Positions 31,232 through 33,606 of a stretch of 33,606 bases of DNA are shown piece after piece. The stretch comes from Clostridiales bacterium (GTDB lineage Bacteria; Bacillota; Clostridia; Christensenellales; Aristaeellaceae): NCBI GenBank assembly GCA_012520375.1, contig JAAYOH010000092.1, positions 1-33,606 of the forward strand, in the 5' to 3' direction. The position numbers were made by a program, and so were the translations under genes. The notes below the pieces were generated by a model. It was given only the letters and a program-made list of their open reading frames with translations. It ran no database searches and had not been told where the DNA came from. The stretch's first letter is position 1. Each line of letters starts with the position of its first letter.

Positions 31232-31255
31232 TGAGGGAAGATGTGAGGGGTCATG

Positions 31256-32251
31256 ATGGGAGATGGGCATGTGCGTAGGGTCCTTGCGGTTCTGTTGACG
31301 GTGCTGTTCGTTTCCGGGGCCTGTGTTGCCGGGAGCGAAACCAAGCGCACGGCGACAGGCTTTTATTTTGACACCGTGGTGACCCTGACGGCCTACACCG
31401 ACGACCCGGAGCTTTTGAACGAGGCGTTGGAGGAATGCGCCCGATACGAGGGGCTCCTCAGCAAGACCCTGCCGGAGTCCGACGTGTGGCGCATCAACCA
31501 CGCAGGTGGGCAGCCCGTCACGGTGAGCGATGAGACGGCGGAGGTCCTGGAGCTCGCCCAAATGGTGTCCCGGCTGTCCGGGGGCGCCTTCGACGCGACG
31601 GTGGCGCCGGCGATGGCCCTGTGGGATTTCACGGGGGACGACCCCAAGGTGCCCGACCCGGCGGAACTGGCGGAGGCGGCACAAAAGGTAGACTACACGA
31701 AGCTGATCCTCGCGGGCAATGCGGTCACCCTGCCGGAGGGCATGCAGATCGACCTGGGGGGCGTGGCCAAGGGCTGGATCGCGGACAAGATCGCCGAACT
31801 GCTGCGGCAGCGGGGCGTCACCAGCGGGCTGCTGAATTTCGGCGGCAACGTGGTGACCATCGGGGAAAAGCCCGACGGGGCGGGCGCCTGGCGGGTGGGG
31901 ATACAAAACCCCGAAGAGCCCCGGGGGGACCACCTGGTGGCCCTGTACGCAAAGGACCTGGCCGTGGTGACCAGCGGTACCTACGAGCGGGGCTTTGACC
32001 TGGACGGGGTGCGCTACCACCACATCCTGGACCCGGACACCGGCATGCCCGTGCAGAACGGCCTGACGGGCGTCACCGTCGTAGGCCCGGATTCCGGCCT
32101 GGATGACGGCCTTTCCACCGCCCTCTTTGTACTGGGGCTGGAGGAGGGCATCCGGCTCGTGGACTCCATGGAGGGCGTGGAAGCCCTGTTCATCACCGAC
32201 GAAGGAAAGATCATGGCGACACCGGGCGCTGCGGCGCTCGTCGTATCATAA
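31256..32251 (+). CDS. apbE: FAD:protein FMN transferase (ApbE)
   Basis: This protein of about 331 residues belongs to the ApbE family, which moves FMN from FAD to a Ser or Thr of target proteins outside the membrane. Motifs visible are TGFYFDTVVTLTAY near the mature start, SGGAFDATVAPAMALW, the family core DLGGVAKGWIADKI, NFGGNVVTIG, and HHILDPDTGMPVQ with SGLDDGLSTALFVLG. A hydrophobic signal segment ends in VSGAC, a plausible lipobox. ATG 31256 has GAGGGG six bases upstream; ATG 31253 and GTG 31271 are alternatives in the same frame. The next gene, 27 bp downstream, encodes FMN-binding domains with ApbE target motifs, so enzyme and substrate are made together. Confidence 0.92.
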   Translation: MGDGHVRRVLAVLLTVLFVSGACVAGSETKRTATGFYFDTVVTLTAYTDDPELLNEALEECARYEGLLSKTLPESDVWRINHAGGQPVTVSDETAEVLELAQMVSRLSGGAFDATVAPAMALWDFTGDDPKVPDPAELAEAAQKVDYTKLILAGNAVTLPEGMQIDLGGVAKGWIADKIAELLRQRGVTSGLLNFGGNVVTIGEKPDGAGAWRVGIQNPEEPRGDHLVALYAKDLAVVTSGTYERGFDLDGVRYHHILDPDTGMPVQNGLTGVTVVGPDSGLDDGLSTALFVLGLEEGIRLVDSMEGVEALFITDEGKIMATPGAAALVVS

Positions 32252-32278
32252 ACGAACGCATACGGAGGGGGAAGGACC

Positions 32279-33606
32279 ATGAAAAAACAGCTTCCGGCAT
32301 GGTTGGCGCTGTGCATCATCTCGCTTGTCGCGGGCTTGCTGCTGGCGTTGACCAATCACCTGACGGTGGATCGCATCGCCGAGCAGGGGGCAGCCAAGGC
32401 CAACGCGGCGCGGCAAAGCGTCATGCAGGGGGCGGAGAGTTTCACCCTGCTGGAGTTGAACCCGGAATGGCTGAAGGATTGCGGAGTGGATGACTGTTAT
32501 GAGTGCCGGGACGGGGAAGGCGCGCTCACCGGCTATACCAGCCAGATCACGGTGAAGGGATACGGCGGGGCGATCGAAGTGGTCACCGGCATGGACACCG
32601 CTGGCGCCATCACCGGCATCGACGTGGGCGGTTCCGGCTTTGCCGAGACGGCGGGGCTGGGGGCCAAGGTCAAGGATGCCGCCTTTACCGGACAATTTGC
32701 GGGCAAGGCCGTCCCCTTGGCGCTGAAAGAGGACATCGACAGCATCACCGGCGCTTCCATTTCTTCCGGCGCCGTGGTGGGGGGTGTGAACAAGGCTGCC
32801 ACCTACATGATGTACCAGGCGGGGCTCGCCCAGCCAGAGGAGAACCCCCTGGAGGGCGCCTTTGAAGTGCGCACCGCCGAAGCCCAGGGTTTTGCGGGGC
32901 CCGTATTCCTGCAGGTGGGCGTGGATGAGAGCGGCGCCATTACCGGGATCAAGGCCGGGGACGAGCGCTTTGCCGAAACCAGCGGCCTGGGCGACCGGGT
33001 GAAGGAGAAGGTCTTCCGGGATCAGTTCCTGGGAAAGAGCGGCCCCTTGAGCTACGGGGAGGATATCGAAGCCATTGCCGGCGCGACCGTCACCTCCGAC
33101 GCCTTCATGGCTGCCTTGAACGAGGCTTTGGGGACTGCGGCGGAGGAGCCTGCAGTGGAGCCTGAGGAAGCTGTGGAAGAAGTTGCAGAAGAGACCGCAG
33201 AGGAGCCTGCGGCGGAGCCCGTTGAGGAAGTTGCGGAAGCATCTGATGCCGAATCCTTAAGCGCCTCCGGCCAAGGCTTTGGCGGGCCCGTGGAGGTCAC
33301 CATCACATTGAACGCGGACGGCACCATCGCTTCCCTTGAAGTCGGGGGCGAAGGGTTTGCCGAGACGCCGGGGCTGGGCACCAACGTCCAGGAGCCCGCC
33401 TTTACGGACCAGTTCATCGGGAAGAAGGGCCCCTTCGCCTTCGGCGAGGGCGTGGAAGCCGTGGCCGGGGCCACCGTGACCTCGAACGCGGCCCTTGACG
33501 CCCTGAACAGCCTGTTCGCCGCGGAAGAAGCTGCGGACATTGCGGCGGAACCCGTTGAGGAAGTTGCGGAAGAAGCGGCCGGGGGGCCGGAGGAAGCTAC
33601 AGAAGC
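32279..33606 (+). CDS. Multi-domain FMN-binding (RnfG/NqrC-like) membrane protein, cut by window edge
   Basis: The frame is open from ATG 32279 to the window end, giving 442 residues so far. One N-terminal helix (about 7-26) anchors it; the rest should be outside the membrane. Three FMN-binding domains follow at about 92-182, 203-285 and 331-413. Each has the pattern GFAET-GLG (or ERFAETSGLG) and ends in the flavin-attachment motif: TGAS at 157-160, AGAT at 267-270 and AGAT at 396-399, with S160, T270 and T399 as likely acceptors. Linkers of Glu, Ala, Pro and Val (about 286-326 and 414 on) join them, and the second linker suggests that further domains follow. GGAGGGGGAAGG precedes the start. 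With apbE upstream, an electron-carrying flavoprotein is very likely. Confidence 0.88.
   Translation, partial: MKKQLPAWLALCIISLVAGLLLALTNHLTVDRIAEQGAAKANAARQSVMQGAESFTLLELNPEWLKDCGVDDCYECRDGEGALTGYTSQITVKGYGGAIEVVTGMDTAGAITGIDVGGSGFAETAGLGAKVKDAAFTGQFAGKAVPLALKEDIDSITGASISSGAVVGGVNKAATYMMYQAGLAQPEENPLEGAFEVRTAEAQGFAGPVFLQVGVDESGAITGIKAGDERFAETSGLGDRVKEKVFRDQFLGKSGPLSYGEDIEAIAGATVTSDAFMAALNEALGTAAEEPAVEPEEAVEEVAEETAEEPAAEPVEEVAEASDAESLSASGQGFGGPVEVTITLNADGTIASLEVGGEGFAETPGLGTNVQEPAFTDQFIGKKGPFAFGEGVEAVAGATVTSNAALDALNSLFAAEEAADIAAEPVEEVAEEAAGGPEEATE
33218..33572 (+). repeat. Repeated linker segment in the multi-FMN gene
   Basis: A 22-base segment encoding PVEEVAE (core GTTGAGGAAGTTGCGG) occurs identically at 33218-33239 and 33551-33572, in the linkers after FMN domains 2 and 3. 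The 333-bp distance (111 codons) is about one domain plus linker, which suggests growth by tandem duplication. Confidence 0.75.

What the first reader, a model, noticed from the sequence alone, without database searches (positions are those of the whole stretch)
31256..33606. ApbE paired with a protein carrying at least three FMN-attachment domains
Covalent flavins attached by ApbE are known from RnfG and NqrC, which have one FMN-binding domain. Here one membrane-anchored protein has three successive domains, each with its own GAT/GAS acceptor motif, joined by flexible acidic linkers, and the frame continues beyond the window. No rnf or nqr genes are visible. Such a chain of flavins could act like a multihaem cytochrome for electron transfer outside the membrane. 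Domain 1 has Ser instead of Thr as acceptor.
Basis: partly seen in the sequence, partly recalled or inferred. Interest (0 to 1): 0.6.

Follow-up and report, generated by a model that had tools for sequence, protein, structure and literature searches.

The report
Multi-flavin RnfG of an RNF operon
The protein is most likely the RnfG subunit of an ordinary bacterial RNF electron-transport complex, extended by a string of extra flavin-binding domains; the rest of the operon lies on another contig because the assembly broke inside the repeats, and RnfG proteins of this kind were already described in 2021.

Summary
The inference from "no rnf or nqr genes visible" fails: the window is a whole contig that breaks inside a tandem repeat. 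Contig C40 of the same genome starts in the same repeat, gives three further domains (one cut), a stop, then DUF1622 and rnfC-D-E-A-B. C53 and C40 do not overlap, so their adjacency is inferred; in the only congener held, the two matching contigs share an exact 124-base end overlap. Of 20 selected family loci, 15 have a complete multi-domain RnfG (3-11 domains) before rnfC, 3 one cut at its 5' end, 2 a single-domain RnfG. Domain 1 is the RnfG domain; distal domains arise by repeated duplication. Multi-flavinylated RnfGs in RNF clusters, some in Christensenellales, were reported by Meheust et al. 2021 (PMC8238504) with the same multihaem-like proposal. Verdict: new member of a known kind. The distal flavins' electron acceptor is unknown; secreted FAD reductases are not a general partner.

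The parts
31253..32251 (+). apbE: FAD:protein FMN transferase with an N-terminal hydrophobic signal or anchor; first gene of the proposed operon and the only ApbE found in this genome
   Evidence: PF02424 E = 3.3e-88; one match in the own genome; hydrophobic segment 10-28
32279..33606 (+). rnfG, 5' part (442 codons, then the contig ends): multi-domain RnfG
   Evidence: PF04205 x3; TIGR01947 rnfG 167 bits, cut-off 102, for the 442-aa protein, but 89.5 bits for residues 1-177 alone; PDB RnfG 7zc6_G E = 6.3e-19 over residues 8-176
32279..32809 (+). RnfG core: membrane helix (aa 7-25) and FMN_bind domain 1, putative acceptor S160
   Evidence: all 19 first domains in the tree form one clade
32876..33136 (+). 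FMN_bind domain 2, putative acceptor T270
33137..33256 (+). acidic, disordered linker between domains 2 and 3
33257..33514 (+). FMN_bind domain 3, putative acceptor T399; close relative of the 300-base repeat units at the start of contig C40
   Evidence: 90-92% nucleotide identity to two C40 copies

Best explanation
This is the 5' part of an RNF operon, apbE-rnfG-(DUF1622)-rnfC-D-E-A-B, in a bacterium of the genus Candidatus Excrementavichristensenella (Clostridia; the name comes from the congener's record). RnfG is extended: its N-terminal membrane helix and domain 1 are the ordinary RnfG, and at least five further FMN_bind domains follow, at least one of them on a long, acidic, disordered linker. 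Inferred function: ApbE attaches an FMN to each domain outside the membrane; domain 1 works in the normal path of RNF (ferredoxin to NAD+ with ion pumping, recalled), and the tethered distal flavins take electrons from domain 1 and carry them outwards, by contacts between neighbouring beads, to acceptors in the wall or outside the cell. That is a side outlet of RNF, loosely like a multihaem cytochrome, though near-identical beads would give no built-in direction. The confidence given is for the identity (multi-domain RnfG of an RNF operon); I put the side-outlet function at about 0.55.
For: Contig C40 of the same genome begins in the same repeat and frame with three more domains (one cut), then a stop, DUF1622 and rnfC-D-E-A-B. 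In the congener, contig C37 (apbE, rnfG domains 1-4) and C39 (the last domains, DUF1622, rnfC-D-E-A-B) share an exact 124-base end overlap. Of 20 family loci that I picked for having both matches on one contig, 15 have a complete multi-domain rnfG with its RnfG N-terminus (3-11 domains) before rnfC, 3 more are cut at the 5' end, 2 are single-domain. On C40 rnfD and rnfE overlap, leaving no room for another rnfG, and one rnfC is found in the own genome at E <= 1e-80. Of 114 domains in a tree, the 19 first domains form one clade, and 51 of 95 distal domains have their nearest relative in the same locus. Copies of the repeat differ mainly at synonymous sites (three pairs: pS 0.15-0.26, pN 0.016-0.039), so the copies look constrained. 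118 of 119 domain rows have Thr or Ser at the acceptor column, the other being a gap. The AlphaFold2 model (mean pLDDT 83, pTM 0.48) is a bead structure; best PDB matches are RnfG 7zc6 and 9eri. The side-outlet function is the published proposal for such RnfGs (PMC8238504, passages read).
Against: C53 and C40 share no exact end overlap, so their adjacency and the true number of domains (at least 6) are inferred; even in the congener an overlap inside a repeat could hide further copies. Residues 1-177 alone score 89.5 bits, below the TIGR01947 cut-off of 102; the whole protein passes because three domains add up. No electron acceptor was found: the genome has seven ORFs that pair FMN_bind with FAD_binding_2 plus one shorter ORF of the type, but 9 of the 15 family genomes with a complete multi-domain RnfG have no FAD_binding_2 match at E <= 1e-15 (7 of the 9 are listed as without a match, 2 fall among its unlisted ones; the first look scored at most 13 candidates per genome). 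The homologous SaFMN3 has one potential for all flavins and flexible linkers, which its authors read as no directionality (PMC10339131, passages). Outside the genus the glycine of the GA[ST] motif is missing in 16 of 17 first domains (TAAT or TSAT), and 10 of 100 other domain rows do not show GA[ST], so flavinylation of every domain cannot be taken for granted in relatives. No flavinylation was measured.
Confidence: 0.85

Rival explanations
1. Electron store: the distal flavins are a capacitor or buffer for RNF, filled when ferredoxin is over-reduced and discharged back through domain 1, with no external acceptor. (Rival of the function, not of the identity.)
For: Near-identical beads on C40 and window domain 3, so probably equal potentials; no consistent partner reductase across the family; domain number varies, 3-11 in 15 complete loci.
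Against: Some six two-electron centres per complex is a small store against a cytosolic ferredoxin or NAD pool, and long linkers are not needed for it (inference).
Confidence: 0.2
2. Stand-alone multi-flavin protein unrelated to RNF: C53 and C40 are not adjacent and the window protein is a separate electron carrier.
For: No exact overlap between the two contig ends.
Against: Same repeat family and frame on both contigs, and of the 17 FMN_bind matches in the genome only those on C53 and C40 lie in frames seen to run off a contig end; congener contigs overlap exactly; unbroken loci of the same order in the family; N-terminal match over nearly the whole rnfG model.
Confidence: 0.04
3. Mainly structural extension: distal domains are spacers or surface-exposed beads grown by unequal recombination, with little redox role.
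For: Array grown by duplication; some distal domains in relatives lack the GA[ST] motif, and the C-terminal part of one RnfG looks decayed (by eye).
Against: Few amino-acid changes between copies; all six domains seen of this protein keep a GA[ST] motif.
Confidence: 0.15

Closest known systems
Multi-flavinylated RnfG of RNF clusters (Meheust et al. 2021, eLife, PMC8238504)
   Same: RnfG with several FMN_bind domains in an RNF gene cluster; the paper also names Christensenellales; same proposed second electron path (passages).
   Different: The Christensenellales examples singled out there carry a multihaem cytochrome domain; no CxxCH is present in the two parts of this protein. I read passages, not the supplementary table, so whether this genus is listed there is not known.
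Canonical single-domain RnfG (PDB 7zc6 chain G, Clostridium tetanomorphum; 9eri chain G, Acetobacterium woodii)
   Same: N-terminal membrane helix and domain 1 align over most of the chain.
   Different: One FMN_bind domain instead of at least six; rnfG between D and E in the usual order CDGEAB (recalled), here before C.
SaFMN3 and CbFMN4, multi-flavinylated proteins (PMC10339131)
   Same: Beads of very similar FMN_bind domains on flexible linkers, modified by ApbE (passages); single-domain structures 8p2a and 8p2b match the model at E 0.0015-0.035.
   Different: Not described as RnfG subunits in the passages read; three and four domains.

Membership tests
RnfG (subunit G of RNF) | Sequence match to the rnfG model over its whole length | tested here: met
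   TIGR01947 positions 2-185 of 187 matched by residues 9-177; 167 bits for the 442-aa protein against a cut-off of 102. Caveat: 89.5 bits for residues 1-177 alone, below the cut-off
RnfG (subunit G of RNF) | Single N-terminal membrane helix followed by an extracytosolic FMN_bind domain with an acceptor motif | tested here: met
   One hydrophobic helix at 7-25, TGAS at S160; best PDB fold matches are RnfG. Topology itself was not tested
RnfG (subunit G of RNF) | Encoded with rnfA, B, C, D and E | tested here: inconclusive
   In this genome by inference across a gap (C40); supported by exact end overlap in the congener and unbroken family loci
RnfG (subunit G of RNF) | Assembles in an active RNF complex | not testable with these tools
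   Needs biochemistry
Multi-flavinylated proteins | More than one FMN_bind domain with acceptor motifs, and apbE in the genome | tested here: met
   Three domains in the window and three on C40 (one cut), a motif in each; apbE adjacent
Multi-flavinylated proteins | Covalent FMN on each acceptor | not testable with these tools
   Needs mass spectrometry
Multi-flavinylated / multihaem RnfG of Christensenellales | Multihaem cytochrome domain (CxxCH motifs) | tested here: not met
   No CxxCH in the window part or the C40 part, nor in the FMN-domain ORFs listed; the unassembled middle was not seen
NqrC (NQR) | NqrC model over its cut-off | tested here: not met
   TIGR01938 50.5 bits against a cut-off of 144

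The most novel reading that the evidence does not exclude
In this family of Clostridia RnfG has become a growable flavin wire: a fixed first domain docks in RNF while the distal beads are repeatedly duplicated and homogenised within each lineage, giving the ion-pumping RNF complex an adjustable outlet to the cell wall or exterior, independent of a dedicated reductase.
Probability: 0.3. Interest if true: 0.45.

Novelty: new member of a known kind. Interest (0 to 1): 0.2.

Why it matters
If the side-outlet model is right, RNF in these Clostridia would lose some of its ion-pumping yield to extracytosolic electron transfer, which is testable.

Tried and rejected
Secreted flavin reductases as the general acceptor: seven FMN_bind + FAD_binding_2 ORFs plus one shorter ORF of the type were found in the own genome, but 9 of 15 family genomes with a complete multi-domain RnfG gave no FAD_binding_2 match at E <= 1e-15. 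Rejected as a general rule, still possible in this genus (10 matches in the own genome; 13, the scoring limit, in the congener).

Multihaem domain in RnfG: no CxxCH.

Exact joining of C53 and C40: no end overlap; the best ungapped register found is 75% over 223 bases, so the two ends are not the same copy.

DUF1622 as a constant part: between rnfG and rnfC in the own genome and, by the inferred join, the congener, and in 2 of 20 other loci (L070, L072); upstream of apbE in L081. Not constant. apbE was found upstream of rnfG within the fetched stretch in 6 of 20 loci (L070, L071, L072, L081, L082, L084); elsewhere the stretch may be too short.

Dropped rows: five domain fragments shorter than 70 residues were left out of the tree; L009, L031 and L085-L087 were not counted as having a first domain because their genes are cut at the 5' end. 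Window and L009, and L030 and L031, are parts of one gene each but count as different loci in the nearest-neighbour tally. Support values of the tree were not inspected; it was rooted at its midpoint. Within the 20 loci two were picked on purpose as single-domain. Change made on rechecking: the count of missing GA[ST] motifs was added and the odds of the structural rival raised from 0.10 to 0.15.

Full report
Observation. The window is the complete contig C53 (33606 bases) of a 106-contig genome. apbE (31253-32251) and an open frame from 32279 to the contig end are real and lie on the same strand, 27 bases apart, with a GGAGG ribosome-site-like stretch before the second gene. Pfam gives ApbE at E = 3.3e-88 and three FMN_bind stretches at E = 1.1e-40 for the protein. 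The putative acceptors are S160, T270 and T399 as stated. Upstream of apbE the genes run the other way (a sugar-type ABC transport set and hisS, judged by eye from the translations) and appear unrelated.

The missing half. A search of the own genome with FMN_bind gave 17 matches, three of them at the very start of contig C40. C40 opens in frame with 245 residues holding three more domains (the first cut), in units of 300 bases, two of which are 93% identical, then a stop at 740. Next come a DUF1622 membrane protein and rnfC, rnfD, rnfE, rnfA and rnfB, with gaps of at most 20 bases or overlaps. rnfD and rnfE overlap, so no rnfG sits between them. The ends of C53 and C40 do not overlap exactly and the copies differ, so the protein has at least six domains and the join is inferred.

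Support from relatives. The only other member of the genus held is G001. The 4000 bases taken from its contig C37 are identical to record DVHZ01000061.1, Candidatus Excrementavichristensenella intestinipullorum. It has the same genes, also split in the repeat, and there the two contig ends share an exact 124-base overlap. In the family, 87 of 120 genomes match the RnfG query at E <= 1e-20 and 106 of 120 match rnfC at E <= 1e-80. I fetched 20 loci chosen because rnfG-like and rnfC matches lay on one contig, two of them for being single-domain, so they are not a random sample. In all 20 the FMN_bind gene precedes rnfC; 15 are complete multi-domain RnfGs with the RnfG N-terminus (3, 3, 3, 4, 4, 5, 5, 6, 6, 6, 6, 6, 7, 7 and 11 domains; the fourth domain of L079 is only a fragment), 3 are cut at the 5' end, 2 are single-domain. 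The order G-C-D-E-A-B is thus shared also by the two single-domain relatives.

How the array evolves. In a FastTree of 114 domains (119 less five fragments, midpoint root, supports not inspected) the 19 first domains form one clade, while 51 of 95 distal domains have their nearest relative in the same locus. The window's third domain groups with the C40 copies and the congener's distal domains with each other, which points to separate expansion or homogenisation in two species of one genus. Three pairs of copies differ at 15-26% of synonymous but 2-4% of nonsynonymous sites. Of 119 domain rows, 114 have Thr, 4 Ser and 1 a gap at the acceptor column; Ser stands in domain 1 of the window protein and of its congener and in two distal domains of G060. 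One genomic domain of the congener is counted twice there because its contigs overlap. The glycine before the acceptor is less constant: 16 of 17 first domains outside the genus read TAAT or TSAT, and 10 of 100 other rows (one of them a gap) do not show GA[ST]. The genus is thus unusual in having TGAS in domain 1.

Structure. The AlphaFold2 model of the 442 residues (18-sequence alignment, mean pLDDT 83, pTM 0.48) shows a long N-terminal helix and three confident domains, with the D2-D3 linker and the C-terminus disordered. The best PDB matches are RnfG of C. tetanomorphum and of A. woodii, then other RnfG and NqrC chains; CbFMN4 domain 1 and SaFMN3 domain 2 follow at E 0.0015-0.035.

Function. 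Shown: domain count and motifs in the sequence seen, gene order in relatives, few amino-acid changes between copies. Inferred: the join in this genome, FMN on each domain, domain 1 in the normal RNF path, distal beads as a side outlet. One ApbE was found in the genome; it would have to serve all substrates, perhaps including RnfD (SSAT at residues 154-157) and the FMN_bind reductases. The end acceptor is open: FMN_bind + FAD_binding_2 ORFs are common in the own genome, but FAD_binding_2 matches are missing in 9 of the 15 family genomes with a complete multi-domain RnfG (seven listed without a match, two among its unlisted ones; at most 13 candidates scored per genome).

Prior art. Meheust et al. 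2021 (PMC8238504; passages read) count 2081 multi-FMN_bind proteins in 1530 genomes with up to 13 sites, report multi-flavinylated RnfGs in RNF clusters, some in Christensenellales with multihaem domains, and propose a second electron path. PMC11334425 and its preprint PMC10979944 (passages) describe beads-on-a-string models, and PMC10339131 (passages) two purified proteins. Full-text searches made; the single paper naming the genus (PMC8035907) was seen only in the listing. In the passages seen I did not meet the fixed first domain, the per-lineage homogenisation or the lack of a general partner reductase; I made no search for these in particular.

Noticed in passing
L009:761-1090; L031:5047-5373; L070:6854-7189; L072:4500-4853: A small DUF1622 membrane protein sits between rnfG and rnfC in this genus and in two other family loci; function unknown, possibly an accessory of this RNF.
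   Followed up: partly
L071:5300-7123: The C-terminal part of a 1323-aa RnfG in a relative looks like decayed FMN_bind repeats without the GA[ST] motif, judged by eye from the translation.
   Followed up: partly
first domains of L070-L083, L088, L089; distal domains of L073-L078: Acceptor motifs without the glycine (TAAT or TSAT in 16 of 17 first domains outside the genus; SSAT, TSAT, SKAT, AAAT or VNAT in nine distal domains), so the number of flavins may be lower than the number of domains.
   Followed up: partly
L085-L087, L070 and L081, before rnfC: Gaps of about 460 bases (three relatives of one genus), 1102 and 848 bases before rnfC may hold further small genes; not examined.
   Followed up: no
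L010, L011, L012, L014, L015, L016, L017, and the shorter L013 ORF: The genome has several ORFs, most with signal-like N-termini by eye, that join FMN_bind to FAD_binding_2 (flavin reductase type), two of them with two FMN_bind domains.
   Followed up: partly
L018:3450-3839: A 130-aa ORF with an N-terminal hydrophobic stretch and one weak FMN_bind-like domain with an altered motif (SGST).
   Followed up: no
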